DNA from: a virus
Reading direction: 5' to 3' (one strand)
IMG/VR virus record: IMGVR_UViG_3300030098_003157
Span: 1 to 25,153 of that record
Length of the DNA: 25,153 nucleotides
In this document: piece after piece, positions 1-17,754 of the stretch
Layout: the number at the start of each line of letters is the position of its first letter
How positions within the stretch are numbered: the stretch's first letter is position 1
Notes under the pieces: model-generated
What the model was told of the DNA's origin: nothing
The model's input: only the letters and a program-made list of their open reading frames with translations
Databases searched by the model: none
Position numbers and translations under genes: made by a program

Positions 1-2
1 CG

Positions 3-386
3 ACCACAGGTTCAGCAGGACTAGACCTGCGAGCGCTCGAAAGGGTGGAGCTCGGATCGGGAGACCAACACGCATTTAATCTAGGTTTCGCGATTGCTCT
101 ACCTTTCGGGAGTTTTGCTCTACTCGCTCCCAGATCTAGTTTAGGTATTCGTGGCATTCATCTGGCAAATCTGGTAGGTATTATCGACAGCGATTATCAA
201 GGCGAACTTATTGTTCATTTGAAAAATAACTCTAGGCATCCCGAACCGTATGTCGTTGAAGAAGGTCAGCGGATTGCTCAACTGCTCGTATTGCAATATC
301 ATCCTGTGGTTTGGGAAGTCGTTGATAAATTTAGTTATTCCTCTGAACGCGGTGAAGGTGGGTTCGGAAGTACGGGTACTCGCTAA
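3..386 (+). CDS. dut: dUTP diphosphatase (dUTPase), 5'-truncated by the window edge
   Basis: Trimeric dUTPases hydrolyse dUTP to dUMP and pyrophosphate, keeping uracil out of DNA and supplying dUMP for dTTP synthesis. Reading in frame from base 3, all five family motifs are visible in order: motif 1 AGLDLRA at the very edge, motif 2 PRSSLG, motif 3 GIIDSDYQGE with the catalytic Asp, motif 4 GQRIAQLLV, and the P-loop-like motif 5 RGEGGFGSTG at the C-terminus. An in-frame GTG at 45 lies after motif 1, so it cannot be the true start; the gene begins upstream of the window. About 127 residues are present, so only roughly 15-30 are missing. It ends just before the first repeated promoter and is probably the last gene of an upstream nucleotide-metabolism or replication operon. 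Identification is very secure. Confidence 0.96.
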   Translation, partial: TTGSAGLDLRALERVELGSGDQHAFNLGFAIALPFGSFALLAPRSSLGIRGIHLANLVGIIDSDYQGELIVHLKNNSRHPEPYVVEEGQRIAQLLVLQYHPVVWEVVDKFSYSSERGEGGFGSTGTR

Positions 387-429
387 CTGCTTTATATTCC
401 CTTTGCTGTTACTTATAATATAAGGGTAA
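387..429 (+). promoter_or_regulatory. Promoter P1 of the first small-gene operon
   Basis: Sigma70-like elements are TTTATA at 391-396, a 17-bp spacer, and TATAAT at 414-419. An upstream CTGC box starts at 387 and the initiation box ATAAGGGTAA lies at 420-429. The same layout with the same spacer recurs at 1485 and 2884. It sits directly after the dut stop and 31 bp before the next ATG. Confidence 0.8.
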
Positions 430-459
430 TTAAAACAATAAATTAGAAAGGAGAAAGCC

Positions 460-720
460 ATGTCGAAAGACAACGAAAAACAACCACTAACCCTAATAGA
501 AAACGGATTCTTTACAAGTTTTGATTCCCTAGACGACGTCATGGATTACATGACTCGATATGGCGGTAAAGAAAACGCTTACCTTTGTGCACTAACACAG
601 GCATTTACTGTAAACACGATCGTTAAAGCAATGGACGAACAGTGTGATGGTACTGCAATCGCTCAAAGAGCCAAGCCTATCCTCACAACAGGTGATGTAG
701 AGGAGGTGTCTGATGAGTAA
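460..720 (+). CDS. Small acidic protein, unknown function (86 aa)
   Basis: First gene of the P1 operon. The start follows a strong ribosome-binding site (AGAAAGGAGAAAGCC-ATG) that recurs, with small changes, before other operon-leading genes here. The product is soluble, with no membrane segment or recognisable motif. The N-terminus is polar and the middle (DSLDDVMDYM, then KENAYLCALTQAF) looks helical. The final residues EEVSDE are encoded by a sequence that also holds the Shine-Dalgarno site and start of the next gene, which overlaps it by 8 bp. Operon position suggests an early-expressed accessory protein; no function can be assigned. Confidence 0.75.
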   Translation: MSKDNEKQPLTLIENGFFTSFDSLDDVMDYMTRYGGKENAYLCALTQAFTVNTIVKAMDEQCDGTAIAQRAKPILTTGDVEEVSDE

Positions 721-1015
721 ACTCAAACTCAAAAAGAAAGAAATCGTGCAAATATGCCAAGAAGTGCGAGAAAGAACGGGGGATGATTCTATTGGAGCAG
801 ATCACTTTTATTACACAGCAGTAATCAGAGGCTACACTAGTGATTGTCCTGGTTGGACTGGAGATATTGCTTTTGTAGTTTATGGCGAAGACTGTTTCAA
901 AGATATTTTTTACAAGATAAAAGGAAAGTGGACTTGGGCAGAAAGTGTCATGGAAAACGATTACGAATATAACAAAGAAATCTTTGAGGAGGTGTCTGAT
1001 GAGCACACGAAGTAA
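713..1015 (+). CDS. Small protein, unknown function (100 aa)
   Basis: Second gene of the P1 operon, overlapping the previous stop by 8 bp and using GAGGAGG at 700-706 as ribosome-binding site. The N-terminus is very basic (SKLKLKKKE) and the rest is aromatic and acidic, with segments such as ADHFYYTAVIRGYTSD and WTGDIAFVVYG suggesting a small alpha/beta domain. It ends EEVSDEHTK, so the same 18-bp coupling cassette that starts this gene also starts the next one. No membrane segment and no recognised family; early accessory role inferred from position only. Confidence 0.75.
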   Translation: MSKLKLKKKEIVQICQEVRERTGDDSIGADHFYYTAVIRGYTSDCPGWTGDIAFVVYGEDCFKDIFYKIKGKWTWAESVMENDYEYNKEIFEEVSDEHTK

Positions 1016-1475
1016 TATAGTATACGACACAGGCGACTCGGTCAGGGCTGTTTATTGCCACCACGATGGTTATTTAGACCATAACGGACGAATTTTGTTC
1101 GAGCATTATAACAGCGAGGATAAAGTTGAGGCGCTTATCGAACTAGGCGACTTTACCAGTTTAAAGCCTACCCTCGAAGAAACTCGCAAGAAAGTGATGC
1201 GCTCGATTAGTTTTGAATCAGATAGAGGTTTTCGCACACTCGACCATTATATGCACCAAGTCGACGGCTGTGATATCGAATATATCTACCTTTGGGATAA
1301 ATATATGTGGTGGGTTTCTCGGAGTATTGCACTTAATCTATGGAACGATACTCCAAGGTATGAGAAAGGCTACAAGGAATGGGTCTTTTACCATTCTAAA
1401 TTTGAGCCACTCGCCCAAGAACTCGCCCAGTGGGACTTAGATAACCCTACAAACGAGCAGGGGCAGTATGTCTAG
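999..1475 (+). CDS. Conserved phage/bacterial protein of the MSTRSNI...YCHxDGY type, unknown function (158 aa)
   Basis: The start at 999 was chosen over an upstream in-frame ATG at 945 because it follows GAGGAGGTGTCTG and begins with the MSTRSNI signature; 945 has no such site and lies deep inside the previous gene. Proteins opening MSTRS(N/R)I and containing S-V-R-(A/S)-(I/V)-Y-C-H-x-D-G-Y followed by L-x-E-H-Y recur in phages and some bacteria and, to my knowledge, lack a known function. Here the motif is SVRAVYCHHDGY near residue 13, then ILFEHYNSEDKVEALIELGD. The C-terminal half is rich in Trp and Tyr (WDKYMWWVSRS). It overlaps the previous gene by 17 bp and is the last gene of the P1 operon. 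Confidence 0.85.
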   Translation: MSTRSNIVYDTGDSVRAVYCHHDGYLDHNGRILFEHYNSEDKVEALIELGDFTSLKPTLEETRKKVMRSISFESDRGFRTLDHYMHQVDGCDIEYIYLWDKYMWWVSRSIALNLWNDTPRYEKGYKEWVFYHSKFEPLAQELAQWDLDNPTNEQGQYV

Positions 1476-1484
1476 GCTCGTAGG

Positions 1485-1527
1485 CTGCTTTATAATCGCC
1501 TTTATGGGGTTTATAATATAGGGGTAA
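1485..1527 (+). promoter_or_regulatory. Promoter P2 of the second small-gene operon
   Basis: TTTATA at 1489-1494, 17-bp spacer, TATAAT at 1512-1517, then ATAGGGGTAA at 1518-1527, preceded by CTGC at 1485. The 22 bp at 1478-1499 are identical to 2877-2898 upstream of the third operon. It lies between the stop at 1475 and the ATG at 1559. Confidence 0.82.
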
Positions 1528-1558
1528 TTAAACAAAAATAATAGAAAGGAAGAAAGAT

Positions 1559-1987
1559 ATGAAAGAATTAATTAATTCAATAGATAAGATCAAAGACGAA
1601 TTACAGGAAACACTGGCATTCGACGAAGTTTATTTAGCCAAAGAAATAATTGAAAAATTGGCTACTAACGAACCTAATTCCGTACACATGGACGACAATG
1701 ATTCGTCGGAAGTTTTCCTAATAGGAGATCATACGAGCATTGACGGAATATTCTGTTGTCCAGATTTTTGGGAAGATGTGATCGAAAAGAAGTATAACAA
1801 TATATGGTATACGAAAGAGCCTAAAGAAAACTACCTCCCAACGATTGTATTAAGTCAAGGAGGAAGTATAGATACACAGGAACCGTACTGGTACAAAATA
1901 TTCATATATACCTACGAAGGAAAACTGCGAGTCACTCTTTGGAGTTCAGACAGTCATGGTGCTGAATACTTAACTAAAGTTTTATAA
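1559..1987 (+). CDS. Acidic protein, unknown function (142 aa)
   Basis: First gene of the P2 operon, after the leader ATAGAAAGGAAGAAAGATATG; the same 21-bp leader precedes the gene at 3564. The N-terminal 40 residues are predicted helical and charged (KELINSIDKIKDELQETL, then YLAKEIIEKL). The remainder looks like a beta-rich globular domain with many aromatic residues (FCCPDFWEDVI, PYWYKIFIYTYEGKLRVTLW). It is strongly acidic overall, with no signal peptide or membrane segment. I do not recognise the family. Small acidic products in early operons are common among phage anti-host and DNA-mimic proteins, but nothing here establishes such a role. Confidence 0.75.
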   Translation: MKELINSIDKIKDELQETLAFDEVYLAKEIIEKLATNEPNSVHMDDNDSSEVFLIGDHTSIDGIFCCPDFWEDVIEKKYNNIWYTKEPKENYLPTIVLSQGGSIDTQEPYWYKIFIYTYEGKLRVTLWSSDSHGAEYLTKVL

Positions 1988-2009
1988 AACAATGATATAG
2001 GAGAAAGTT

Positions 2010-2276
2010 ATGTACTTTGAATTAGTAGAAGAACAAGAAACAAAACAAGAACCGACCCTTGCCGAAATGGTCGAAACAATGTCTCAGGACAGAGGGCTGA
2101 AACCTTATGTCACTCGGAGCCGATTTTACAATATGGAGATCGTTGTGAGTGAGGGTAAGCGACTCGCTCGAACGAAAAATCGAGCTAAAAGCTCATACCA
2201 CGCATTCTGGGTCGACGACGAGCTCTACAAAGAATACCTTGCCGAGGGCAGAAAGCCCGTGGAGGTGTCTAAATGA
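2010..2276 (+). CDS. Small charged protein, unknown function (88 aa)
   Basis: Second gene of the P2 operon; its ribosome-binding site is ATAGGAGAAAGTT before ATG. The N-terminus is very acidic (YFELVEEQETKQEPTLAEMVE) and the middle basic (SEGKRLARTKNRAKSS), ending in an aromatic/acidic stretch (YHAFWVDDELYKEYLAEG). The charge segregation could suit nucleic-acid or protein binding, but no domain is recognisable. The end of the gene carries GGAGGTGTCT, the same element used as embedded ribosome-binding site at 703 and 989, and its stop overlaps the next start as ATGA. Confidence 0.72.
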   Translation: MYFELVEEQETKQEPTLAEMVETMSQDRGLKPYVTRSRFYNMEIVVSEGKRLARTKNRAKSSYHAFWVDDELYKEYLAEGRKPVEVSK

Positions 2277-2551
2277 TTGACTGGGGAATACAAGAATGGA
2301 CTAAGGTTGGCGAGATAGAAGTCAACAGACCTGCCTCAGACAGTGCGGTCGAGGTGAAAAACCCGACCTACAGCAAAGATTTGGGTGAGTTTTATCAAGC
2401 ACCGATTGACGAGCGAGGAACAGATCATCTGCTGACGTGTTACGCACGAGCCGAACGAGATGAGGACTACGACTACCTCCATATAGAGTATGGTGGCGGG
2501 ACAGGATTCACTCTACGATTTGCAAGGAGGGTAAGTAATGAAAGAACCTAA
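2273..2551 (+). CDS. Small acidic protein, unknown function (92 aa)
   Basis: Third gene of the P2 operon, translationally coupled by an ATGA overlap (2273-2276) and served by GGAGGTGTCT at 2261-2270. It contains several Asp/Glu clusters, a TDHLLTCYARAERDEDYDYLHIEYGGG stretch split by acidic residues, and a glycine-containing GGGTGFTLRFARR end. It looks like a small beta-rich fold. There is no membrane segment and no family I can name. It overlaps the following gene by 14 bp. Confidence 0.72.
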   Translation: MIDWGIQEWTKVGEIEVNRPASDSAVEVKNPTYSKDLGEFYQAPIDERGTDHLLTCYARAERDEDYDYLHIEYGGGTGFTLRFARRVSNERT

Positions 2552-2882
2552 ATTATACAAGCTCTACTTCGAATACAGGCACGAGGTGCAACCGAAAGAT
2601 GATGTCTTTGTTTGCATTTGCCGAGCCGAGCAAGTAGAAAAGATAATGAAACATTATTATGAACTTTGGGACGAAATTGTGGAGAGACAACTCTGCAGGG
2701 CTTTGAATGAACACTCTATCGAAGAACTAACAAACGATCCAATATTACAGGGTTGGGAATCGTTCGCGGGAACGATACTCGAGGATCTCGAACCAGAACC
2801 AGGAAAGCGCTTTTACTATTGGGAAGAGGGAGTAGATGGATACACGCTCGAGCCTATCCTAAGCGTCGTGGGCGGTTCGTAG
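2538..2882 (+). CDS. Acidic protein, unknown function (114 aa)
   Basis: Last gene of the P2 operon. The ribosome-binding site AAGGAGGG is embedded in the preceding gene, 6 bp before the ATG. The protein opens with a basic/aromatic strand-like segment (KLYKLYFEYRHEV), continues with helices (RAEQVEKIMKHYYELWDEIVE), and ends YYWEEGVDGYTLEPILSVV. Its stop codon lies inside the 22-bp sequence shared with the promoter at 1478, so gene end and promoter P3 abut directly. Soluble; no recognised motif. Confidence 0.72.
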   Translation: MKEPKLYKLYFEYRHEVQPKDDVFVCICRAEQVEKIMKHYYELWDEIVERQLCRALNEHSIEELTNDPILQGWESFAGTILEDLEPEPGKRFYYWEEGVDGYTLEPILSVVGGS

Positions 2883-2883
2883 G

Positions 2884-2926
2884 CTGCTTTATAATCGCTT
2901 TACTCTACCCTATAATATAGGGGTAA
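2884..2926 (+). promoter_or_regulatory. Promoter P3 of the third small-gene operon
   Basis: TTTATA at 2888-2893, 17-bp spacer, TATAAT at 2911-2916, ATAGGGGTAA at 2917-2926. It shares upstream sequence with P2 but has a longer leader of about 50 bp containing CTACGCGTATAGCGAG, which can form a short imperfect hairpin. Confidence 0.82.
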
Positions 2927-2978
2927 GCTACGCGTATAGCGAGTTAAAACAATAAATACATTAGAAAGGGAGAAAGAA

Positions 2979-3197
2979 ATGTTAGAAAACATCGAAACAA
3001 TCAAAAAGGGGACCAAGCTGATTACAAACCAGCTGTTCGGGATCCCGACTAGAGCCATAGCTATGGAAAGTATCAAGCAAGGACGCGGACTGAAACAGTA
3101 TTTACTTTGCGATGTCAAAGGAGCCGAGAAAGGATTCTACGACGAGTGCGGTAGCGTACCAGTCAGTAACATCATTGCAATCGTGGAGGAAGACTGA
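2979..3197 (+). CDS. Small protein, unknown function (72 aa)
   Basis: First gene of the P3 operon, with leader AGAAAGGGAGAAAGAA before ATG. The product is close to neutral, with LENIETIKKGTKLITNQ followed by GIPTRAIAMESIKQGRG and a C-terminal strand/acid tail (NIIAIVEED). No membrane segment or known motif. Its last codons (GTGGAGGAAGAC) provide the ribosome-binding site for the next gene, which starts one base after this stop. Confidence 0.7.
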   Translation: MLENIETIKKGTKLITNQLFGIPTRAIAMESIKQGRGLKQYLLCDVKGAEKGFYDECGSVPVSNIIAIVEED

Positions 3198-3198
3198 T

Positions 3199-3549
3199 AT
3201 GAAAATATACGAAATATATGCAAACGACGAGCTTTGGGACGAGACCAGTTGCCCGTTTGGGACTGAGGTATTGACTAGAGAGGCGGTAGACCCACTACCT
3301 ATGTCTGAGTTAGACGAAACGGAGTTATGTGAACAACTGACTGCGGCTAATTTAGATTATATTAAATCGAGTGACGATCTATATGTAGACATGCAATGGG
3401 AAGAGGAAGATTACACTTCAGGGTTTTATATAAGTGCATTGACGTATGTTTACGACAAATATATTTATTATGTGAAAATGCATAGAGCTGATGGATGTGA
3501 TGGATATGTAATGTCGAGAGAGCCACGATTTAACAAAAAGTATTTATAG
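3199..3549 (+). CDS. Strongly acidic protein, unknown function (116 aa)
   Basis: The ATG at 3199 was chosen because it follows GTGGAGGAAGACTGAT directly; a longer reading from 3112 would overlap most of the preceding gene and lacks a ribosome-binding site. The product is very rich in Asp, Glu and Tyr (SELDETELCEQL, SDDLYVDMQWEEEDYTSG, YVYDKYIYYVKM). The dense negative charge resembles DNA-mimic style phage proteins in a general way, but no fold is recognisable and this is only a possibility. The stop overlaps the leader of the next gene. Confidence 0.72.
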   Translation: MKIYEIYANDELWDETSCPFGTEVLTREAVDPLPMSELDETELCEQLTAANLDYIKSSDDLYVDMQWEEEDYTSGFYISALTYVYDKYIYYVKMHRADGCDGYVMSREPRFNKKYL

Positions 3550-3563
3550 AAAGGAAGAAAGAT

Positions 3564-3788
3564 ATGGATAAAGTAGAATACTTAGAGGAACAGACGTTCT
3601 TCAACAACGGTCAGTTCACCGAAGCTGAGATGGACCTTATGAACGAGGCACTTAACCAATTTCTACAAGACCTGAGCCGTAAACGAACGGCAGTGGTCGG
3701 AGTACCTACAATTACTCAAGCGATTAGAAACTATGAAAAGATCGAAGAAGTAGAAGATTTAATCGAAAAGCTCCAGGAGGGCAGTTGA
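3564..3788 (+). CDS. Small helical protein, unknown function (74 aa)
   Basis: Preceded by the 21-bp leader 3546-3566, identical to 1541-1561, giving AAGGAAG as ribosome-binding site. It appears almost wholly helical and acidic: TEAEMDLMNEALNQFLQDL, a short basic turn RKRTAVV, then TITQAIRNYEKIEEVEDLIEKL with coiled-coil-like spacing. A small oligomeric or regulator-binding protein would fit. Its end, CCAGGAGGGC, holds the ribosome-binding site of the next gene. Confidence 0.7.
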   Translation: MDKVEYLEEQTFFNNGQFTEAEMDLMNEALNQFLQDLSRKRTAVVGVPTITQAIRNYEKIEEVEDLIEKLQEGS

Positions 3789-3789
3789 T

Positions 3790-3987
3790 ATGTTACCACC
3801 AAAAGTAAAACTCGAGGCAAATGAGAGCAAAGATATCACTCAACTAAGTATATTACAACCCGACATGCTCAAAGATGTCACCAATATCAGGGATATACTC
3901 GAGGAGCAGACAGGGATGTTTATCAGCGGTCCAAATGTAATACGAGCGTGTATCAAAGCATGGTACGACCTTAACAATAATGGATAA
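3790..3987 (+). CDS. Small protein, possible ribbon-helix-helix DNA-binding fold (65 aa)
   Basis: Starts one base after the previous stop, with CAGGAGGGCAGTTGAT upstream. After a charged N-terminus there is a strand-like ITQLSILQ, then a helix (DMLKDVTNIRDILEEQTG), a turn FISGPN and a final helix VIRACIKAWYDL. A short beta-strand followed by two helices at this length resembles the ribbon-helix-helix (CopG/Arc) arrangement, but no diagnostic residue confirms it. If correct, it would be a candidate repressor of these operons. Low confidence in function, fair confidence in the gene. Confidence 0.65.
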   Translation: MLPPKVKLEANESKDITQLSILQPDMLKDVTNIRDILEEQTGMFISGPNVIRACIKAWYDLNNNG

Positions 3988-4015
3988 CTTAACTAGCGCG
4001 TGGAGGCGCAGTATT

Positions 4016-4426
4016 ATGGAAGCAAGAGAAAGAACCCCAGACGGTTGGGAAATAATATCCGTCAAAGAGCATGTCATTCCAGAGATTAAAGAAGTAATCG
4101 CGGATGGCAAAGAACAGGACAGAGTAGTTGATATTGTCACCGATCTACTTAGTCCAGCGAAAGATGTGGTTGGATGGTATTTTTCAGAGCAGCGATCTGA
4201 TGAAAGAGTAGCAGCGGAAGTAGACGCACTGGAGTATCACGAAATCTACTCGTCTGTTTGGATGAATGATCTCCCCAGTACGGGTTATAACTGTATTGGT
4301 GTTATGGTCGGTGAGTGGAATGAGGATCGTACCGAACGTCAATTCTATGTGGTGTTAAGTATGAATGGTTCGTGGGGTGCGAGCGCTCTATCCGAATACT
4401 TCAGATTCACTGAGTATAGTCAATAA
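4016..4426 (+). CDS. Acidic protein, unknown function (136 aa)
   Basis: Last gene of the third operon. The ATG at 4016 is preferred because GGAGG lies 9 bp upstream (4002-4006). An in-frame ATG at 3980 would give 148 residues and an 8-bp overlap with the previous gene, but has no Shine-Dalgarno site, so the start is not certain. The sequence begins EARERTPDGWEIISVKEHV, continues with helices rich in Asp/Glu, and ends with a more hydrophobic beta-like part (CIGVMVGEWNEDRTERQFYVVLSMNGSW). No known motif. A strong terminator follows 28 bp downstream. Confidence 0.72.
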   Translation: MEARERTPDGWEIISVKEHVIPEIKEVIADGKEQDRVVDIVTDLLSPAKDVVGWYFSEQRSDERVAAEVDALEYHEIYSSVWMNDLPSTGYNCIGVMVGEWNEDRTERQFYVVLSMNGSWGASALSEYFRFTEYSQ

Positions 4427-4438
4427 ATCTCCCCCAAA

Positions 4439-4485
4439 GATCACTCTGTGATCGCCCCCGATTGTCTGACAGTCGGGGGTTTTTT
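4439..4485 (+). terminator. Strong intrinsic terminator closing the small-gene region, with a preceding hairpin
   Basis: CCCCCGATTGTC (from 4455) pairs with GACAGTCGGGGG (ending 4479), a stem of about 11 bp with one G-T pair, followed by six T at 4480-4485. A separate perfect 6-bp hairpin, GATCAC-TCT-GTGATC, lies immediately upstream at 4439-4453. Confidence 0.93.
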
Positions 4486-4531
4486 CGTTATTAAATCTAT
4501 TGGTATTGTTTTTCTGGAAAATAAAAAAGTT

Positions 4532-4551
4532 TTTGAAAAAAGTTTTTCAAA
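4532..4551. repeat. Perfect inverted repeat TTTGAAAAA / TTTTTCAAA
   Basis: Nine-bp arms at 4532-4540 and 4543-4551 separated by AG. The element is AT-rich, has no T-run in the right position for a terminator, and lies in the gene-free gap upstream of terS. It could be an operator. Confidence 0.6.
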
Positions 4552-4647
4552 TGTACTAATATCTCTAATAGAGTAATAGATTCGCTCTACAACCCTCTTG
4601 TTCACTGGGTTCTTTCAAATGTCAAAAGTAATAGATTTTCTATTAGT
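4545..4647. repeat. Direct and inverted repeats upstream of terS
   Basis: TTTCAAATGT occurs at 4545-4554 and 4613-4622. AGTAATAGATT occurs at 4572-4582 and 4627-4637. The second copy extends into a palindrome, TAATAGA-TTT-TCTATTA (4629-4645). Together they occupy most of the gene-free 4486-4742 region, which otherwise holds the T7-like promoter match and a TATAAT box. Repeated operator or replication sites are possible. Confidence 0.55.
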
Positions 4648-4659
4648 TATTAGAAACTA

Positions 4660-4679
4660 TGGTAAGATTCACTAGAGGG
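4660..4679 (+). promoter_or_regulatory. Possible T7-like (single-subunit RNA polymerase) promoter upstream of terS
   Basis: Aligned on the GGG start, bases 4660-4679 match the T7 consensus from -17 to +3 at 15 of 20 positions by eye. The core TTCACTAGAGGG compares with CTCACTATAGGG, and GA at -11/-10 is kept. No RNA polymerase gene is in the window, so a chance match is not excluded. A TATAAT box at 4709-4714 without a good -35 is an alternative promoter for the same gene. Confidence 0.35.
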
Positions 4680-4742
4680 CATGAGAAAAGTATATAAAAT
4701 GAGTATTTTATAATAAGATTGTAATAGCATTTGGAGAACCTT

Positions 4743-5276
4743 ATGAAACAACTGACTTACACAAATTTGGTCCCTGCAGAGGATGGAAATGGCTTCGTTG
4801 ATGAGAACGGTAAGATTTGGAAGCAGCTCAACTCAAAACAAAAGAAATTTTGCCGTGAGTATCTCAAAGGTCAGACCGCTACGCAAGCCGCGATAAAAGC
4901 GGGCTATACCAAGGATCGCAAGGGTGCCAAGACTCAAGGGAGTGTATTACTAAACCATAACCCAGTTGTACGCAATTATTTGATTGAGTTGGAAATGGCA
5001 CTCGCAGAGCGAGATGCAGTTTCCCTGGAGAGCCATTTGTCCACCCTCCACGATCTACGGGAGGAGGCAAGGGACCAAGGACAGGTGTCCGCGGCTATCA
5101 CAGCGGAGGTCCATCGAGGGAAGGCAGGCGGACTGTACATCGACCGACGCGAAATACTGACCGCAAAGATCGATATGATGTCCAAGGACGACATACTCAC
5201 TCGACTCGAGGAGCTGATCAAGAAGCGAGCGACCGAGTCAAACGTGATCGAGGGAGAGTTTGTACCCAAAAACTGA
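4743..5276 (+). CDS. Terminase small subunit (177 aa)
   Basis: TerS recognises phage DNA and recruits the large subunit for packaging. The N-terminal domain has the Terminase_2-type helix-turn-helix pattern: LNSKQKKFCREYLKG (residues 29-43), TATQAAIKAGYT (45-56), then GSVLLNHNPVVRNYL (66-80). Helical oligomerisation segments follow, and a C-terminal EGEFVPKN tail. The ATG at 4743 was chosen because GGAG lies 6 bp upstream; an in-frame TTG at 4731 would only add MENL. The second half of the gene is much more GC-rich (about 58% over 5041-5220 by count) than its first half or most of the window. TerL lies 4.6 kb downstream, not adjacent. Confidence 0.92.
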   Translation: MKQLTYTNLVPAEDGNGFVDENGKIWKQLNSKQKKFCREYLKGQTATQAAIKAGYTKDRKGAKTQGSVLLNHNPVVRNYLIELEMALAERDAVSLESHLSTLHDLREEARDQGQVSAAITAEVHRGKAGGLYIDRREILTAKIDMMSKDDILTRLEELIKKRATESNVIEGEFVPKN

Positions 5277-5328
5277 TTGGATCCAATTGCTCTACTCTAC
5301 TCTACTCCATTCAATTGCATCCAATTGC
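5276..5328. repeat. Palindrome and CAATTGC / CTACTCTA repeats after terS
   Basis: ATTGGATCCAAT at 5276-5287 is a perfect 12-bp palindrome overlapping the terS stop. CAATTGC follows three times (5284, 5312, 5322), interleaved with two overlapping CTACTCTA copies (5292 and 5297). The rest of the 5277-5416 spacer is pyrimidine-rich and then GC-rich, without a credible gene. Confidence 0.6.
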
Positions 5329-5416
5329 TTGAGCCCAATCCCTTGCCCTGACTCTTTCCCTCGCTCTTTCGGTCCGTGGCTCGCGGTCCAGGATCGGCGG
5401 TTCGTGAATTGATTAC

Positions 5417-5450
5417 ACTGCTTTACTTTGCAGCAGTTCTTTAGTACAAT
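5417..5450 (+). promoter_or_regulatory. Promoter P4 for the 5509 gene
   Basis: ACTGCTTTACTT from 5417, with -35 TTTACT at 5422-5427, a 17-bp spacer and -10 TACAAT at 5445-5450. Same design as P1-P3 but without the GGGTAA initiation box. The leader ends in CGGAGAAAGAAATG. Confidence 0.65.
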
Positions 5451-5508
5451 TCTTATATGGTAGCAAAAGGGTTGTTACCAAACCTAGAAAGTAGAAACGG
5501 AGAAAGAA

Positions 5509-5856
5509 ATGAACCAAACTACGAAAAAAGCGGATACAGCTTCAAAAGTATCAAAAATAGATTCGAACTACAAAGCACCGATTGGTCGCAGTAATTCGAG
5601 CAATGCAACTGTTGAATTACTTAGGACGCCAGTCGAGGGTGTCGATAAAGTTCCACCGCAAATGGGGAAAATTATCGAAGCGTTGGTTGCTGCCAAAGGT
5701 AATACACTAACTGTTAGAGAGTTGAGAGGTGAGAACGAATCAGGTCTTAACAGTGCGTTGGATGCAATTGGATTAGAGACAGAGCAAACAGCTTCTAGGA
5801 TCTGGTCTTTCTACCGCAAGCGATTGATTAAAGAAGGTTTCATCAACATTAGTTGA
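5509..5856 (+). CDS. Small basic protein, possible winged-helix DNA-binding domain (115 aa)
   Basis: A single-gene unit between its own promoter (5417) and terminator (5873), with ribosome-binding site CGGAGAAAGAA. The first 45 residues are polar, basic and probably disordered (NQTTKKADTASKVSKIDSNY). The rest, from about residue 50, runs PPQMGKIIEALVAAKG, TLTVRELRGENESG, then LETEQTASRIWSFYRKRLIKEGF. A helix, helix, helix and basic C-terminal segment of this type resembles winged-helix domains, but no family is identified. It could regulate the neighbouring late genes. A moron-like insertion between terS and the holin/terL block is likely from the layout. Confidence 0.78.
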   Translation: MNQTTKKADTASKVSKIDSNYKAPIGRSNSSNATVELLRTPVEGVDKVPPQMGKIIEALVAAKGNTLTVRELRGENESGLNSALDAIGLETEQTASRIWSFYRKRLIKEGFINIS

Positions 5857-5872
5857 TTGAGCCCAATCGCAA

Positions 5873-5904
5873 GGAGTCGATCGAAAGGTCGGCTCCTTTT
5901 TTTT
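5873..5904 (+). terminator. Intrinsic terminator with GAAA tetraloop after the 5509 gene
   Basis: GGAGTCGATC (5873-5882) pairs with GGTCGGCTCC (5887-5896) as a 10-bp stem including G-T pairs, closed by GAAA and followed by eight T (5897-5904). Confidence 0.93.
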
Positions 5905-6082
5905 GCTCTACTCTACTCTATCACTCTACTCTATCCATCACTCTATCGCTCGCTCTATCCCTCGCCCTTTCACTCTATCCCTGACCCACTCACTCTACTC
6001 TATCGGTCTACTCTATCGATCAATCTTTCGTTCCGTGCGTCCGTCGCTCCTTGGATCCTTCCGTCCGTCCCTCCGTCCGTCG
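5905..6082. repeat. Pyrimidine-rich degenerate array of ACTCTA(T/C) and CCGT units
   Basis: Starts directly after the terminator. ACTCTA begins at 5910, 5915, 5923, 5928, 5940, 5972, 5992, 5997 and 6010, with GCTCTA variants at 5905 and 5952. From about 6031 it becomes GC-rich CCGT repeats (CCGTCCGTCCCTCCGTCCGT at 6061-6080). The same ACTCTA word recurs at 5294 and 5299 after terS and at 6614, 6625 and 6675 after the next terminator. Reading frames through it are low-complexity and I do not treat them as genes. Confidence 0.75.
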
Positions 6083-6100
6083 TAAAATCTTACTTGTTAG

Positions 6101-6165
6101 CTTAGTAGCTTAGTAGGTTAATTAGTTAATATATTACTTGACATAGTCAGTCAGTAGTCCATACT
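6101..6165 (+). promoter_or_regulatory. Promoter P5 with upstream tandem repeat, for the 6197 gene
   Basis: A consensus -35 TTGACA at 6138-6143 is followed after 16 bp by CATACT at 6160-6165 as a weak -10. Upstream, CTTAGTAG is tandemly repeated (6101-6108 and 6109-6116) before an AT-rich stretch that could be an UP element or operator. Confidence 0.5.
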
Positions 6166-6196
6166 GGTTACTCAATTAATAATAAAGGAGGACATC

Positions 6197-6556
6197 ATGT
6201 CCAACAATAATACAAAGTCAGCAAAGACTCAAAAAACAGCTAAGCGTACACTCAAGCCTATTAAAGGTAAGATAAACATGGATAAGAATACATTTAGCGT
6301 TGATTCTAACGCGATGGATATCTTATTCAACGCTATGCCTAGTCAGCTACAACAAGCCTTACACAAGGCTGAGATTGCACCTAATAACTCAATCAATATG
6401 AAAGAGTTAAACGATTGGTGGATAGCTGAATTTGTTGATACGGGTATCTATACTCAAGACTTTTACACAGTCATCAACCATTACAGGGCTAGGTTTACTA
6501 AAACTTATAAAGGTTTTAAGCCTGAGGAATTGGCTACCTTATTTACTATAAGTTAA
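6197..6556 (+). CDS. Small protein with basic N-terminus, unknown function (119 aa)
   Basis: A second single-gene unit, with ribosome-binding site AAAGGAGGACATC before ATG and its own terminator 21 bp after the stop. The first 35 residues are Lys/Thr/Asn-rich and probably disordered (SNNNTKSAKTQKTAKRTLK). The remainder is helical: NAMDILFNAMPSQLQQALHKAEI, then MKELNDWWIAEFVDTGI, and YTVINHYRARFTKTYKGF. It has the same plan as the 5509 product (basic tail plus small helical domain, about 115 residues) but no obvious sequence similarity. No family recognised; nucleic-acid binding is plausible from the charge. Confidence 0.78.
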   Translation: MSNNNTKSAKTQKTAKRTLKPIKGKINMDKNTFSVDSNAMDILFNAMPSQLQQALHKAEIAPNNSINMKELNDWWIAEFVDTGIYTQDFYTVINHYRARFTKTYKGFKPEELATLFTIS

Positions 6557-6577
6557 CCATCAACTATAACTACAACG

Positions 6578-6606
6578 GGGCTAGGCTAATAACCTAGCCC
6601 TTTTTT
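6578..6606 (+). terminator. Intrinsic terminator after the 6197 gene
   Basis: GGGCTAGG (6578-6585), loop CTAATAA, CCTAGCCC (6593-6600), then six T (6601-6606). A perfect 8-bp stem. Confidence 0.94.
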
Positions 6607-6817
6607 CATGTCTACTCTATATCTACTCTATCCCTTAAACCTAGTCATTTAACCTCTAATCAATTCCTAACCCTACTCTATACCTTACCCCTAAGTAAAG
6701 TAGTAATGACCCCTATACCCCCTAAAACTGCGCTAGGCGCGGGTCCCACCCGCCCGACCTGGACCCAGACTCTTGGTTGCATGTATTTTTCAAATGGGAC
6801 TCCTACCGAAAAAATAT
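6607..6817. other. Non-coding spacer with ACTCTA copies and a GC-rich hairpin block
   Basis: ACTCTA occurs at 6614, 6625 and 6675. After an AT/pyrimidine-rich stretch the sequence becomes GC-rich at 6730-6765: GCGC-TAG-GCGC (6730-6740) and a perfect hairpin GCGGGT-CCC-ACCCGC (6739-6753). No T-run follows, so it is not a terminator. A packaging or recombination site is possible. No gene seen; in-frame codons from 6777 lack a ribosome-binding site. Confidence 0.5.
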
Positions 6818-6846
6818 TTTGCAAAAAAATTTTTTGAGATTATACT
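6818..6846 (+). promoter_or_regulatory. Promoter P6 for the packaging/head operon
   Basis: TTTGCA at 6818-6823, 17-bp spacer, TATACT at 6841-6846. It sits 32 bp before the chosen start at 6879 and downstream of the GC-rich block. Confidence 0.6.
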
Positions 6847-6878
6847 TTACAGATGAAACATGTTCTATGGAGCAGGAA

Positions 6879-7763
6879 ATGCCGTTAAAGTCAGGTTCGT
6901 CCAATAAAACCGTTTCCTCGAACATTTCCAAACTAAGAGGAGAAGGCTACCCACAAGACCAAGCGATAGCTATTGCTCTTTCCAATGCTCAGAAAAAGTC
7001 TAATGGCGGCGAGATTGACCGCTTAGATGAAATTTATGTTGACGATGATGTAGATGAGATTATTCTTTCTCGGCAACCGATTCAGTGGGACTATGAGAAG
7101 ATGAAAAAATATATGAATGAAGCGAGATTGTTAGACCAGCCTCCAGAAACTGTTTTCTATCGAGCGTATAAAGACAATGACCTTTCTGAAGATGAATATT
7201 TTCAATTTAAATATAAAGCAGAACAACTTCAAGAGTTAAAGGATCAAAGGGATGAAGAGCGCGAAAAACAAAGAATACGTGACTGGGCTGAAGGTAAAGT
7301 GGATGATCCAATTTTTTTAGAAAAAGGGGGCGAGATTGACCGCTTAGATGAGATCGACTCAGAAACATTTGATATGCCGACTGAGGACCCTGGATTACAG
7401 GAAGTCGATTTTATTTCTTGGCTCTTTCCAGAATTAAAATTACTTAAAGGTATTCCCGCCGCATTAGGCTTGGTCACCAAACCATGGACCAAGTACACTC
7501 GTAAGAAATTCACTAAAGCAGGAAACCCTAGTCAACGAACAACGGACGGTTCTCGACTTTCCGCTCCTAAGAAACAGCCCATGCTAGATTTTTTCAAAGA
7601 AACTGAGGGAGGATCTAATTTGTCGGGATTAACTCCGAAAACTCTCGAAGCGGTTAAAGCAAATTTAAAAGCGTATGAAGCAGCTGCTTCTCGTACATCA
7701 CAATCAGATAAACAAGGGATTAATTATATGTTACAAATTCTTCGCGATATCGGTGAAATTTAA
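6879..7763 (+). CDS. Acidic protein of unknown function, MPLK-type N-terminus (294 aa)
   Basis: The start at 6879 is chosen over 6777 and 6867: GGAG lies 6 bp upstream and the protein then opens MPLKSGSSNKTVSSNI, with REGYPxxQA(I/V)AIALS-like residues near 30, an opening I associate with phage proteins of unknown function. The middle is highly charged and helical (residues about 75-150). A GGEIDRLDEI motif occurs twice, encoded by identical 23-bp repeats at 7008-7030 and 7329-7351. A hydrophobic glycine/proline stretch (FPELKLLKGIPAALGLV) precedes a basic C-terminal third. Its location before the holin-like gene and terL suggests a late role, perhaps virion-internal. Function unknown. The stop overlaps the next ATG by one base. 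Confidence 0.8.
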   Translation: MPLKSGSSNKTVSSNISKLRGEGYPQDQAIAIALSNAQKKSNGGEIDRLDEIYVDDDVDEIILSRQPIQWDYEKMKKYMNEARLLDQPPETVFYRAYKDNDLSEDEYFQFKYKAEQLQELKDQRDEEREKQRIRDWAEGKVDDPIFLEKGGEIDRLDEIDSETFDMPTEDPGLQEVDFISWLFPELKLLKGIPAALGLVTKPWTKYTRKKFTKAGNPSQRTTDGSRLSAPKKQPMLDFFKETEGGSNLSGLTPKTLEAVKANLKAYEAAASRTSQSDKQGINYMLQILRDIGEI

Positions 7764-8197
7764 TGGGCTTTCCTTTTGAAATAATAACTATGCTGGGCTC
7801 AACACTGCTCAGTAGTTTGTTAAGTATTTGGTCGCAAAGCCGTAAAGCAAAAGCTGAAGAACAAAAGCTCTTGATTACTAGAGGCGAGTTTGAGATGAAA
7901 GCGGTTCAACAGGCGCGGGAAGTAAAAGATAAAGGCTTTGCATGGACACGCAGAATTATCGCGCTAACTGCTATATTTGCAATCGTTTTGTTACCGAAAC
8001 TGGTTGCGGTCTTCTATCCGATGGTCGATGTAACGGTAGGTTATACAAACTGGATGCCTGGATTTTGGTTCTTTAAAGAAGGCAGAGAAGTTTTTGAATG
8101 GGTCACGTTCCAAGGACTTGTGATCACGCAACTCGATACGAACTTGGTCTCGGCTATTATCGGGATGTACTTTGGCGGCAGTTTAGTTAAAAAATGA
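7763..8197 (+). CDS. Holin-like membrane protein (144 aa)
   Basis: The protein has an N-terminal hydrophobic segment (residues about 3-23), a long basic amphipathic helix (25-62), a clear membrane segment RIIALTAIFAIVLLPKLVAV (64-83), and a weaker third hydrophobic segment near the C-terminus (about 125-141, LVSAIIGMYFGGSL). It ends with Lys residues. This pattern matches the three-TM holin family found in phages and gene transfer agents, which permeabilises the inner membrane for lysis. The catalytic lysis enzyme is not in the window. Alternatively it is an uncharacterised virion or superinfection-exclusion membrane protein. The start overlaps the preceding stop (TAATG). Confidence 0.7.
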   Translation: MGFPFEIITMLGSTLLSSLLSIWSQSRKAKAEEQKLLITRGEFEMKAVQQAREVKDKGFAWTRRIIALTAIFAIVLLPKLVAVFYPMVDVTVGYTNWMPGFWFFKEGREVFEWVTFQGLVITQLDTNLVSAIIGMYFGGSLVKK

Positions 8198-8229
8198 CCG
8201 CGAAACTTAGAAACCCATCTATGACTTTA

Positions 8230-8263
8230 ACTGCTTTACTTATAAATTGAATTATTTTAAAAA
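8230..8263 (+). promoter_or_regulatory. Weak promoter candidate sharing the ACTGCTTTACTT box
   Basis: ACTGCTTTACTT at 8230-8241 is identical to 5417-5428 in P4. At the same 17-bp spacing the -10 would be TAAAAA, which is poor. TATACT at 8279-8284 is a better -10 with TTTAAA 17 bp upstream, but would start transcription almost at the ATG (8291). Confidence 0.3.
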
Positions 8264-8290
8264 GAACAGCGTTTAACATATACTACAAGG

Positions 8291-9916
8291 ATGAATCCAT
8301 ATTTATTAAATAGATTAGATGAAATGAATCCTTCGGGTAGGTCAGGAACTTGGGAAATACAAAATGACCAAAGTCTAAAAGAAGTAGTGCCTCCTTCTCA
8401 AGAAGAATTAGACAACTATAAAAAATATTATTTAGCTTCAATTGATAAACAACTTCCTTTTGAAACAATACTGCGTTCCGATTTACAGGATAAAAAAATT
8501 GACGAAGAACGGTTTGATAAATTTATAAAAATTTACAATCAACAGCAAAAAGTACAAAAACAATATAACCAAGAACTCAAAGATCAAGCTCTTTATGACC
8601 TTGGAAGTAGACTAAGTGGAGATATCCCAAGGTATACTGAAGAAAACCCCGCACGATTAGCTAACGGCGGTTCACCCGAACAAGAATTTGTAAATCAGCG
8701 GATAGCTGAGTTGATGATGGAAGAACCCACAGGTGCAGGGTTAAATGAAATGCGAGCGGTTTCTCCCGATATGTTTGAACGTCAGAAGTTAGGTATCGAA
8801 AGACTTCTTTCTAATCTTTATGAACCGCGTCGGGCGAGAGATATTGCTGAAACCATTTCTACAGCAGTTGATTTTAGCCCTGCAGGAATTCCCACCGCCG
8901 TAGCTGAAGGAATTCGAATGATGGGAGATGACCAACCGTTGATGGGAGCGGGTATGGTAGTATTAGGGATATCTCCGTTTAAAGGTATGTCTCGAGTTAA
9001 GTTAAAAGGTTTACTTAAAAAAGCCGATGAAAAGTTAGATAACCTTAGAACAAGACAATACCAAGCTGAATCTAAAATGAAAGACGGACTAAGCAAAGCG
9101 GACTTTGATGAGGGCTTTAAAGAAAGCAATAAAATTCAAGCAGACATAAATAAAACTGAAAAAGAAATAACTGAAATTAAAGAAGCATTAAACCCAAATT
9201 CTGGGTCAGGCACTAGAAGGAGCCGACGAGAAGAAATTGTTAAAAGTAATTTAATGGAGGCTAAACAGGCAACTCAAACAGCAAAAGAGGGCTATGAAAA
9301 AGCTAGCACCCAGCTAGATGAAGTGCTCCAACCCTACATAAGGTTGACTCCTGAAGAACGAACAGCTCAAACAGCAAAAGAGGGCTATGAAAAAGCTAGC
9401 GACTACCTAGATAAAGTGCTTGAATCTTACAAATTATCAGGCAGTAAAAGTATTTTGCCTGAAAAAGAAGCCTTAGAAAGAAGTGATCGTTTTTTAAATA
9501 TAAAAAGTGATGGTCGTAGCTATGGGTTTCATAAAAAAGGAGAGTCTACAAGTTGGTTTATTGATCCTGAAACAAATGAAGTTTTTAAATGGTATTCAGG
9601 AGAAGGAGCAACTCCAAAAGGGTATCACGTTAGGCGAGAAGTTCCAGACTTTGTTCGTAAACTTCAAGAATCGTCAAGAAGAAATCAGCCTAAACAAGTC
9701 AAAGGCATTATCAATGCGACTCCCGAAACGCAAAAATTATACCAAGAACTTTTAGACAGTCCTTCTGCAATCAATACTCCTAGACATAATAAAGTTGGAA
9801 AAGATGCAAGCGAACAATTACGGGAAATTAAGAAACAAGTAGAGGAATCAGATTTAGAAGATAGAAACGAAGTCCTTCGTTTATTAGCGCAGCTAAGAGA
9901 TAAAAAGCCTAAATGA
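8291..9916 (+). CDS. Large charged helical protein of unknown function (541 aa)
   Basis: It lies between the holin-like gene and terL, ending in an ATGA overlap with terL. The ribosome-binding site is weak (ACAAGG adjacent to ATG). Residues 1-130 are polar and helical. A glycine-rich hydrophobic stretch at about 195-235 (DFSPAGIPTAVAEGIRMMG, then PLMGAGMVVLGISPF) could touch membrane. A long coiled-coil-like region follows (about 240-385) and contains QTAKEGYEKAS twice, encoded by a perfect 35-bp direct repeat (9273-9307 and 9366-9400). The C-terminus is basic and ends LRDKKPK. The gene is markedly AT-rich. Virion-internal or ejected protein is one possibility; no family recognised. Confidence 0.78.
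   Translation: MNPYLLNRLDEMNPSGRSGTWEIQNDQSLKEVVPPSQEELDNYKKYYLASIDKQLPFETILRSDLQDKKIDEERFDKFIKIYNQQQKVQKQYNQELKDQALYDLGSRLSGDIPRYTEENPARLANGGSPEQEFVNQRIAELMMEEPTGAGLNEMRAVSPDMFERQKLGIERLLSNLYEPRRARDIAETISTAVDFSPAGIPTAVAEGIRMMGDDQPLMGAGMVVLGISPFKGMSRVKLKGLLKKADEKLDNLRTRQYQAESKMKDGLSKADFDEGFKESNKIQADINKTEKEITEIKEALNPNSGSGTRRSRREEIVKSNLMEAKQATQTAKEGYEKASTQLDEVLQPYIRLTPEERTAQTAKEGYEKASDYLDKVLESYKLSGSKSILPEKEALERSDRFLNIKSDGRSYGFHKKGESTSWFIDPETNEVFKWYSGEGATPKGYHVRREVPDFVRKLQESSRRNQPKQVKGIINATPETQKLYQELLDSPSAINTPRHNKVGKDASEQLREIKKQVEESDLEDRNEVLRLLAQLRDKKPK
9273..9400. repeat. Perfect 35-bp direct repeat within the 8291 gene
   Basis: Bases 9273-9307 and 9366-9400 are identical; the period is 93 bp (31 codons), so the duplication is in frame. 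The protein repeat is QTAKEGYEKAS, followed by the diverged pair TQLDEVLQPY / DYLDKVLESY. Confidence 0.9.
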
Positions 9917-11439: not shown

Positions 11440-11464
11440 TAAAATAAAGGTATGATTTACAGAC

Positions 11465-13897: not shown

Positions 13898-14100
13898 TGC
13901 GTGATTATTACGATAATGACAAGTACCCTTCGCCTTCGCCTAAGAAAACAAAGCCTGCGCCAAGTTTTCCTAGCGTAGAAGATATGACTAAAATAGAGTC
14001 TGTAGAAGCGGGGGAGTGTCTTGATGAGCCTGAAAAAGCTAAAGTAAAAGCAGCTTACGGGCAGACTAAAGGTCTTCTTTGGTATCGTTCTATTAAGTAA
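13897..14100 (+). CDS. Small Pro/Lys-rich protein, unknown function (67 aa)
   Basis: Starts on the last base of the portal stop, after GGAGAAAAGTA. The N-terminal half is low-complexity (DKYPSPSPKKTKPAPSFPS), the C-terminal half helical, ending TKGLLWYRSIK. Position between portal and co-chaperonin suggests a small virion or assembly protein, but nothing specific can be recognised. Confidence 0.7.
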   Translation: MRDYYDNDKYPSPSPKKTKPAPSFPSVEDMTKIESVEAGECLDEPEKAKVKAAYGQTKGLLWYRSIK

Positions 14101-14103
14101 TTA

Positions 14104-14731: not shown

Positions 14732-14752
14732 ACTAACCACATGGAGAAGACC

Positions 14753-15610: not shown

Positions 15611-15611
15611 A

Positions 15612-16112: not shown

Positions 16113-16137
16113 CTTGTATTAATAATAGGAGATTATT

Positions 16138-16677: not shown

Positions 16678-16690
16678 TTAGGAGAATAAC

Positions 16691-17599: not shown

Positions 17600-17618
17600 T
17601 TCCATTTACGTGAACTTG

Positions 17619-17647
17619 AAAGGGAGCTTCGGCTCCCTTTCTTTTTT
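17619..17647 (+). terminator. UUCG-capped intrinsic terminator after the coat gene
   Basis: AAAGGGAGC (17619-17627), tetraloop TTCG, GCTCCCTTT (17632-17640), then C and six T (17642-17647). Confidence 0.95.
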
Positions 17648-17675
17648 GTCTTTTCTATTATAGAATGATAAAGAT

Positions 17676-17731: not shown

Positions 17732-17754
17732 TTATTTTTTCTTAGGAGGAAATT

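What the first reader, a model, noticed from the sequence alone, without database searches (positions are those of the whole stretch)
460..4426. Twelve unrecognised small genes in three overlapping operons
Apart from the MSTRSNI-type gene, none has a motif I recognise, and most are acidic. They overlap by 1-17 bp and sit before the packaging genes. Such modules are where host-takeover, anti-restriction, anti-CRISPR and other anti-defence proteins are usually found. The strongly acidic 1559 and 3199 products are the best DNA-mimic style candidates.
Basis: inference. Interest (0 to 1): 0.6.

Follow-up and report, generated by a model that had tools for sequence, protein, structure and literature searches.

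The report
Phage island of swappable small genes
Twelve small, mostly acidic genes of a marine phage sit in a fast-changing region where related phages swap single genes, and the swaps break mostly at the ribosome-binding sites and copied promoters, a likely toolkit for handling the host whose individual functions remain unknown.

Summary
Twelve ORFs lie at 460-4426, between dUTPase and the small terminase gene; four or five of eleven junctions overlap, by 4-17 bp. Each of three operons begins with a copy of one sigma-70-type promoter-leader (TTTATA-17-TATAAT at 391, 1489, 2888), and the array ends in an intrinsic terminator (4454-4480). Most genes are under purifying selection and as a set are more acidic than the rest of the window. 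Close relatives, about 95% identical in flanking core genes, share only 27-66% of this stretch. Blocks of homology end at translation-initiation regions: 81 of 103 breakpoints lie within 30 nt of a start codon (17.7 expected), and four further groups of relatives repeat the pattern. Genes and promoter cassettes change neighbours. I read this as a hypervariable accessory island exchanged cassette by cassette, joined at ribosome-binding sites and repeated promoters, and probably expressed early or middle. The anti-defence and DNA-mimic claim is plausible but untested: the screens named no anti-defence family, and the two predicted structures match nothing confidently. One product, 3790-3987, is a possible ribbon-helix-helix protein. 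Closest known: T4 PeSL cassettes and mycobacteriophage start-associated sequences.

The parts
3..386 (+). dUTPase gene, 3' part (cut by the window start): conserved left flank
   Evidence: PF00692 E 7e-18, phrog_135 E 1e-37; over window 1-457 (dUTPase plus promoter 1) three close relatives are 96.3-96.5% identical (L084, L155, L157) and L082 lies within a 93.7% block
391..452 (+). promoter-leader copy 1: TTTATA (391) - 17 nt - TATAAT (ends 419), then AT-rich leader with AGAAAGGA
   Evidence: repeat family D1; 10 of 12 consensus matches, one of five sites tied at the top of 23
460..720 (+). g01, 86 aa, acidic; family of 10 in 61 island regions
   Evidence: dN/dS 0.21
700..717 (+). ribosome-binding-site repeat GAGGAGGTGTCTGATGAG, 3' coding tail of g01 and initiation region of g02; exact copy at 986-1003
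713..1015 (+). g02, 100 aa; one relative found
   Evidence: dN/dS 0.37 at 49% identity
986..1003 (+). second exact copy of the ribosome-binding-site repeat (initiation region of g03)
999..1475 (+). g03, 158 aa, 'MSTRSNI' protein; PHROG 1987, function unknown; the only one of four members tested with relatives in sequenced phages
   Evidence: phrog_1987 E 9e-22; 22 phage records; dN/dS 0.17
1489..1550 (+). promoter-leader copy 2
   Evidence: followed by different genes in the window and four close relatives
1559..1987 (+). g04, 142 aa, acidic (net -14); family of 4
2010..2276 (+). g05, 88 aa, family of 3
2273..2551 (+). g06, 92 aa, family of 8
2538..2882 (+). g07, 114 aa; largest cluster (58 members in 37 island regions, two or more copies in 14), every member acidic; predicted two-strand, long helix, three-strand fold without confident match
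2888..2975 (+). promoter-leader copy 3, with near-palindrome GCTACGCGTATAGC in the leader
   Evidence: the same cassette follows g03 instead of g07 in L155
2979..3197 (+). g08, 72 aa, family of 5; protein identical in L084
3199..3549 (+). g09, 116 aa, most acidic per residue (net -15); predicted helix plus four-stranded antiparallel sheet of moderate confidence
3564..3788 (+). g10, 74 aa, acidic
3790..3987 (+). g11, 65 aa, possible ribbon-helix-helix DNA-binding protein
   Evidence: RHH_5 best E 0.0023 and RHH_1 best E 0.0066, each in 3 of 7 family members, none for the window's own copy
4016..4426 (+). g12, 136 aa (start 4016 preferred over 3980), acidic; family of 9
4454..4480 (+). intrinsic terminator closing the island; conserved right flank begins about 4418
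   Evidence: 12-pair stem and T run; window 4418-5442 is 97.9% identical in L082 and 4425-5307 is 98.1% in L084
4743..5276 (+). terminase small subunit gene, conserved right flank
   Evidence: PF03592 E 2e-14, phrog_51 E 2e-19

Best explanation
This is a hypervariable accessory-gene island of an uncultivated marine tailed phage, distantly related to the HTVC023P/HTVC027P pelagiphages by its large terminase. It lies between the replication/nucleotide module and the packaging module. Shown by sequence: three tandem transcription units, each opened by a copy of one sigma-70-type promoter-leader, closed by one terminator; real genes, mostly under purifying selection; and gene content that turns over between close relatives in units that begin at one Shine-Dalgarno sequence and end at the next. 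Inferred: the repeated promoter-leaders and similar initiation regions serve as short homologies for recombination between co-infecting phages, so that each new gene arrives with, or is fitted behind, a working ribosome-binding site and is expressed at once by host RNA polymerase in the early or middle phase. Inferred more weakly: the cargo proteins act on host functions (takeover or counter-defence), which is why the set is constantly replaced.
For: Promoter copies: 66-nt repeats at 387, 1485 and 2884, self-BLAST E 6e-10 to 3e-7, three of the five sites tied at the top of 23 promoter-like hits. The same leader opens different genes in relatives: after g03, promoter 2 is followed by five different genes in the window, L082, L084, L155 and L157. 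Window 2874-2989 (promoter 3, behind g07) matches L155 9634-9748 (behind g03) at 89%. Breakpoints: 81 of 103 unique block ends in five islands lie within 30 nt of a start codon against 17.7 (sd 3.8, maximum 33 in 10,000 draws). Left ends fall at -16..-8 in 24 of 58 (1.5 expected), right ends at 0..+18 in 31 of 45 (2.4 expected); 28 of the 36 left ends at -35..0 that have a preceding gene lie inside that gene's coding sequence. The pattern repeats in four other groups: 123 of 277, 242 of 506, 97 of 168 and 128 of 191, against nulls of 48, 97, 32 and 35. A clean joint: L084 lacks g09, and the initiation region of g09 is fused to the body of g10. Island initiation regions share exact runs of 9 nt or more in 8 of 66 pairs, against 3 of 325 elsewhere in the window (Fisher p 5e-5, pairs not independent). 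Core against island: L005 is about 95% identical over 4418-6244 and 9689-21425, while island coverage is 0.27-0.66 in the close relatives (some of these hold only part of the region). Gene pool: 797 ORFs of 61 regions form 185 clusters, 82 of them single. Timing: in the sister record G001 the promoter motif occurs only at 25-41 kb, on one strand, among replication genes and the island; in the window only at the three island sites.
Against: Breakpoints at gene starts are also expected if random exchanges are filtered by selection for intact genes, so microhomology use is not proven; in compact genomes starts and stops lie together. The Shine-Dalgarno core is similar for functional reasons. Outside the closest group a third to over half of breakpoints are not near a start (154 of 277 in group B, 264 of 506 in C, 71 of 168 in D, 63 of 191 in E). 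No recombinase was identified in the 17 G001 proteins scanned. The weaker promoter hits in G001 are of the same order as the reversed-pattern control (3 hits there). Early or middle expression and any effect on the host are inferences without transcript or phenotype data. All relatives are metagenome contigs; the host is unknown.
Confidence: 0.72

Rival explanations
1. The island is an anti-defence locus in the strict sense: the acidic products, above all 1559 and 3199, are DNA mimics or inhibitors of restriction, CRISPR or other immune systems.
For: Excess acidity, small size, extreme turnover among relatives, family restriction to this phage group for the families tested, and no virion or housekeeping fold for the two families modelled. 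One low-ranked VIA-align row for 3199 is AcrID1 (Z 4.4, rmsd 4.2, 80 aligned), within the background of unrelated folds.
Against: No anti-defence family hit in Pfam, PHROGs, PADLOC or NCBIfam. Charge per residue is at most -0.13, less extreme than I recall for Ocr-type mimics. 1559 is not among the most acidic per residue. Acidity is shared by most of the gene pool (mean -0.052 over 797 ORFs), so it does not single out mimics.
Confidence: 0.4
2. Ordinary phage mosaicism: exchanges occur anywhere, and only those at gene boundaries survive. The similar ribosome-binding sites are functional convergence and the promoter copies are simply what operons need.
For: Illegitimate recombination with selection is the prevalent view (PMC2327257, PMC3203893, passages read). 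A Shine-Dalgarno core is functionally constrained. In groups B and C about half of the breakpoints lie elsewhere.
Against: 28 of 36 left ends lie inside the previous coding sequence, and left ends pile up at -16..-8 of the next start. Shared initiation-region runs are commoner in the island than in the same window's other genes. A promoter-leader of about 115 bp is found in two different gene contexts.
Confidence: 0.3
3. The island is a set of late or virion-associated small proteins (decoration, assembly) transcribed with the packaging genes.
For: Same strand and next to the terminase genes.
Against: An intrinsic terminator at 4454-4480 separates it from the small terminase gene. Its promoter type recurs among replication genes and not in the structural region of the window. 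No virion match by PHROG, or by fold for the two modelled families. Content is far more variable than the head genes.
Confidence: 0.06

Closest known systems
PeSL mobile regulatory cassettes of T4-like phages (Arbiol 2010, Comeau 2014; papers not held, known here through passages of PMC4503421 and recall)
   Same: Copied early-type promoters between small accessory genes, with gene shuffling between related phages around them.
   Different: No stem-loop or terminator accompanies promoter copies 2 and 3 here; the commonest joint is the ribosome-binding site of single genes; the phage is not T4-like.
Start Associated Sequences (SAS/ESAS) of Cluster K mycobacteriophages (PMC3203893, passages read)
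   Same: A phage-specific repeated sequence immediately upstream of many start codons, in front of genes of different families. Its authors suggested it could be a target for recombination.
   Different: Here the repeat is a purine-rich extended Shine-Dalgarno (AGAAAGGAGAAAG and GAGGAGGTGTCTG types) rather than the 13-bp SAS. No ESAS-type inverted repeat was looked for. Breakpoint mapping here supplies the recombination evidence that was left as a suggestion there.
Short conserved flanking sequences of lambdoid phages (Clark 2001, cited in PMC2327257; passages read; the term 'boundary sequences' is recalled)
   Same: Short shared sequences flank exchanged modules.
   Different: Here the shared sequences are the translation-initiation regions themselves and the exchanged unit is often one gene.
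S-PM2 'ORFanage' (PMC4503421, passages read)
   Same: A block of small orphan genes in a marine phage, lost and gained as cargo.
   Different: That block was lost as a whole, with few promoter or stem-loop elements; this one turns over gene by gene with a repeated promoter per operon.
Early genes of pelagiphage HTVC027P (PMC12753301, passages and section 12 read)
   Same: Related by large terminase (54% identity); all its early genes have unknown function; it relies on host RNA polymerase.
   Different: In HTVC027P the small-terminase region has minus-strand genes and a different order; no homologous island was seen there.

Membership tests
T4 PeSL cassettes | promoter copies repeated between accessory genes | tested here: met
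   three copies
T4 PeSL cassettes | stem-loop (terminator) coupled to each promoter | tested here: not met
   no terminator-like site near 1476-1530 or 2883-2930 on the + strand (simple scan)
T4 PeSL cassettes | homology breaks between relatives occur at the cassettes | tested here: met
Start Associated Sequences | repeated sequence immediately upstream of starts of unrelated genes | tested here: met
Start Associated Sequences | the Cluster K 13-bp consensus | tested here: not met
   the island's initiation regions show AGAAAGGAGAAAG or GAGGAGGTGTCTG types, not the consensus quoted (read by eye)
Anti-defence / anti-CRISPR / anti-restriction proteins | sequence match to a known family | tested here: inconclusive
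   no relevant hit; PADLOC holds defence rather than counter-defence models
Anti-defence / anti-CRISPR / anti-restriction proteins | inhibits an immune system | not testable with these tools
   needs expression assays
DNA-mimic proteins | strong net negative charge | tested here: inconclusive
   net -15 of 116 residues for 3199, -14 of 142 for 1559; acidity is general in the pool
DNA-mimic proteins | acidic residues laid out like DNA phosphates on the surface | not tested
   no coordinates at hand; the 3199 model is of moderate confidence and 1559 was not modelled
Ribbon-helix-helix (CopG/Arc-like), product 3790-3987 | profile match above the curated cut-off | tested here: inconclusive
   RHH_5 best E 0.0023 and RHH_1 best E 0.0066 in 3 of 7 relatives; none for the window's copy; no PDB match
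PHROG 1987 (MSTRSNI proteins), product 999-1475 | profile match over most of the family length | tested here: met
   E 9e-22, residues 1-107 to profile 1-115 of 128
HTVC023P-type pelagiphages | terminase homology with the same gene order around it | tested here: inconclusive
   large terminase 53-58% identical to HTVC023P, HTVC027P and 023Pt_psg01, but a different order at the small terminase in HTVC027P and 023Pt_psg01

The most novel reading that the evidence does not exclude
These phages run an integrase-free cassette system: the translation-initiation region (extended Shine-Dalgarno plus start codon) is a standard joint, and a roaming promoter-leader starts new operons. Any small gene can therefore be spliced in, deleted or traded singly by annealing-type recombination and be expressed at once. 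A clade-wide pool of nearly two hundred gene families, dominated by acidic proteins such as the 2538-2882 superfamily with its tandem paralogues, is dealt out in this way as rapidly renewed anti-host weapons.
Probability: 0.27. Interest if true: 0.7.

Novelty: new variant of a known kind. Interest (0 to 1): 0.42.

Why it matters
How phages trade single genes without breaking expression is an old question, argued between random illegitimate exchange with selection and short-homology exchange. Here many close relatives allow the joints to be mapped to about ten bases, and they fall mostly on ribosome-binding sites, a suggestion left open for mycobacteriophage start-associated sequences. It also marks a bounded locus (dUTPase to small terminase) from which candidate host-takeover and counter-defence genes of marine phages can be harvested by position, including a 58-member acidic cluster with a confidently predicted fold and no confident structural match.

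Tried and rejected
DNA-level search of window 1-5500 in sequenced phages: no match. Protein searches of 2538, 4016 and 2273 in sequenced phages: none; only 999-1475 had relatives, mostly jumbo enterobacterial phages and T4-like cyanophages. The other eight products were not searched in that collection. Common ancestry of the 1559, 3199 and 4016 families, suggested by eye from similar hairpin motifs, was not supported by profile comparison (probability 0.1-1.5%). Solved-structure sequence searches with the families of 2538, 3199, 3790, 4016 and with 999: nothing relevant. Structure searches: 2538 best Z 4.2 (ERH; rmsd 4.8, 79 aligned), best Foldseek E 1.2; viral library best E 0.14; 3199 best Z 6.0 (DcrB; rmsd 4.6, 83 aligned), best Foldseek E 0.12. 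All are within the stated background; none was used. Rfam: no match. tRNA: none. Host assignment through bacterial genomes failed: no relatives of 2538 or of the large terminase. A first hybrid-protein idea for the start of 3980-4426 was dropped when 4016 proved the better start.

Limits: breakpoint scripts used my own gene caller. Breakpoints within 8 nt on one contig were merged (176 to 103), but independent events were not counted on a tree. Islands were reduced from 84 to 61 by removing those with identical ends; regions without a detected dUTPase were cut 7 kb upstream of the small terminase, so part of their ORFs are replication-side genes. Structure was predicted for 2 of 12 families, the cap. 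For the family screen one representative was given for each of the 103 clusters with two or more members; the 82 single ORFs were not screened there.

Full report
What is there. The window is part of a 26,441-base IMG/VR virus record. It holds dUTPase (3-386), twelve small ORFs (460-4426), terminase small subunit (4743-5276), terminase large subunit (9913-11439), portal (11465-13897) and major head protein (16691-17599). The large terminase is 53-59% identical to phages 023Pt_psg01, DSL-LC04 and pelagiphages HTVC027P and HTVC023P. The host is unknown: no relative of the large terminase or of the 2538 product was found in bacterial genomes by these pattern scans.

The twelve ORFs are genes. Each has a Shine-Dalgarno sequence. 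A script caller run blind on 387-4742 returned the same twelve, except that it started the last at 4016 rather than 3980. dN/dS against a relative is below 1 in 11 of 12 cases. Overlaps are 4-17 bp at four or five of eleven junctions, the rest being gaps. As a set they are acidic (mean net charge per residue -0.077, against -0.013 in the rest of the window, p 0.0009). The sister record's replication region, used as a second control, gave -0.019 (p 0.004).

Regulatory anatomy. The three operons begin with copies of one promoter-leader: TTTATA, 17 nt, TATAAT, then a conserved stretch TATAATATARGGGTAA and a leader ending in AGAAAGGA-type Shine-Dalgarno. They are three of five sites tied at the top of the 23 promoter-like sites in 1-9950 (the total of 23 is no more than the 20.8 expected in shuffles, so it is the repetition and not the count that matters). 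In the window the core motif occurs nowhere else. A strong intrinsic terminator at 4454-4480 closes the array. In the sister record G001 the motif (two mismatches allowed) occurs five times, all on one strand at 25-41 kb, ahead of its small terminase. The reversed-pattern control gives three hits in that record, so the two-mismatch hits are weak singly. Two of these sites sit among its primase, helicase, thymidylate synthase, DNA polymerase and HNH genes. I infer an early or middle expression class read by host polymerase. HTVC027P has no polymerase of its own, and all its early genes are of unknown function (PMC12753301, section 12 and passages).

Turnover. I compared the window with four close relatives whose dUTPase is 98-99% identical. 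In L005 (same record as L082 and L156) the core is about 95% identical over 4418-6244 and 9689-21425, but island coverage is only 0.37 there; coverage is 0.66 in L156, 0.50 in L084, 0.27 in L155 and 0.36 in L157 (L005, L155 and L157 hold only part of the region). Homology comes in blocks of about one gene. After g03, promoter copy 2 is followed by five different genes in the five phages. The cassette around promoter 3 (window 2874-2989, behind g07) is found in L155 behind g03 (89%), so the promoter-leader itself moves. L084 lacks g09, with the initiation region of g09 fused to the body of g10. Over 61 non-duplicate regions upstream of the small terminase, 797 called ORFs form 185 clusters, 82 of them single. 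Of the eleven neighbour pairs of the window, four recur in no other region and seven in one or two.

Where the breaks fall. Of 103 unique block ends in the five islands, 81 lie within 30 nt of a start codon; uniform placement gives 17.7 (sd 3.8) and never more than 33 in 10,000 draws. Left ends pile up at -16..-8 (24 of 58, 1.5 expected) and right ends at 0..+18 (31 of 45, 2.4 expected). Of 36 left ends at -35..0 that have a preceding gene, 28 lie inside that gene's coding sequence, so the junction follows the ribosome-binding site and not the stop codon. Four other groups of relatives show the same excess: 123 of 277 (48 expected), 242 of 506 (97), 97 of 168 (32) and 128 of 191 (35). The remainder in those groups, about half in the two largest, are not near a start, and I count that against a single mechanism. 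The initiation regions of the island share exact runs of 9 nt or more in 8 of 66 pairs, against 3 of 325 for other genes of the window. The repeat GAGGAGGTGTCTGATGAG (700-717, 986-1003) explains the shared EEVSDE tails of g01 and g02: they are the coding read-through of the next gene's ribosome-binding site.

Proteins. Only g03 has a PHROG (1987, unknown function) and relatives in sequenced phages (22 records); g06, g07 and g12 have none there and the other eight were not searched. g07 belongs to a 58-member cluster in 37 of 61 regions, with two or more copies in 14 and 12 adjacent pairs; every member is acidic (net -4 to -18). The cluster is single-linkage and may hold more than one family; 43 of the 58 were given to the structure prediction. 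Its AlphaFold model is good (pLDDT 84.7, pTM 0.79) and has no confident match (best PDB Foldseek E 1.2, VIA-align Z 4.2; viral library E 0.14). g09 gave a middling model (pLDDT 74.9 for the best of five, the others 56-61; pTM 0.70) with only background matches (DcrB, Z 6.0). g11 looks like a ribbon-helix-helix protein: three of seven relatives match RHH_5 (best E 0.0023) and three match RHH_1 (best E 0.0066), weak matches, and the window's copy matches neither.

Function. Screens of the window proteins and of one representative for each of 103 clusters in Pfam and PHROGs, of the representatives in PADLOC, and of eleven window products in NCBIfam named no counter-defence family; some representatives matched 2OG oxygenase, MazG and several DUFs. 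DNA mimicry is not supported beyond charge, and charge is general in the pool.

What is known. Mobile promoter/stem-loop cassettes (PeSLs) shuffle genes in T4-like phages; the primary papers are not held and I rely on a citing paper's passages (PMC4503421). The promoter copies here lack the coupled stem-loop. Cluster K mycobacteriophages carry start-associated repeats before genes of different families, and their authors suggest these could be recombination targets (PMC3203893, passages). Cluster O phages show deletions between short direct repeats (PMC4351075, passages). Lambda Red recombines diverged DNA, and about half of the lambdoid mosaic blocks have flanking similarity (PMC2327257, passages). 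I found no held paper describing this island or mapping gene-swap joints to ribosome-binding sites in such phages, in the searches; that library lacks most subscription journals.

Verdict. Observation confirmed; interpretation partly supported. The island is a new variant of a known kind: a mosaic accessory region whose standard joints are translation-initiation regions and copied promoter-leaders.

Noticed in passing
window 5277-9912: The stretch between the two terminase genes is also variable (5500-9912 is 62% covered in the closest long relative) and holds strong terminator-like hairpins at 5871-5898 and 6577-6601.
   Followed up: no
window 5280-5345: Low-complexity run ctctactctactcc...ccaattgc with paired ATTGGATCCAATTGCT-type repeats (5276-5291, 5314-5329), next to the small terminase gene; a packaging or origin signal is possible.
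   Followed up: no
window 21754-24800: Long ORF region with a repeated GVAGTxALGT-like motif (tail or fibre-like), with long reading frames on the opposite strand too.
   Followed up: no
window 20312-21025: 237-aa protein in the structural region without any PHROG or Pfam match.
   Followed up: no
L198 (G002) 157-171, minus strand; copies also in G001 at 41026 and G004 at 1925: A further promoter-leader variant TATAATAGGGGGGTA followed in G002 by a GC-rich hairpin (cccccgctagggcggg), a possible promoter plus stem-loop cassette closer to a T4 PeSL.
   Followed up: partly
window 2927-2940: Near-palindrome GCTACGCGTATAGC in the leader of promoter 3, largely shared with L155; a possible operator or hairpin.
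   Followed up: no
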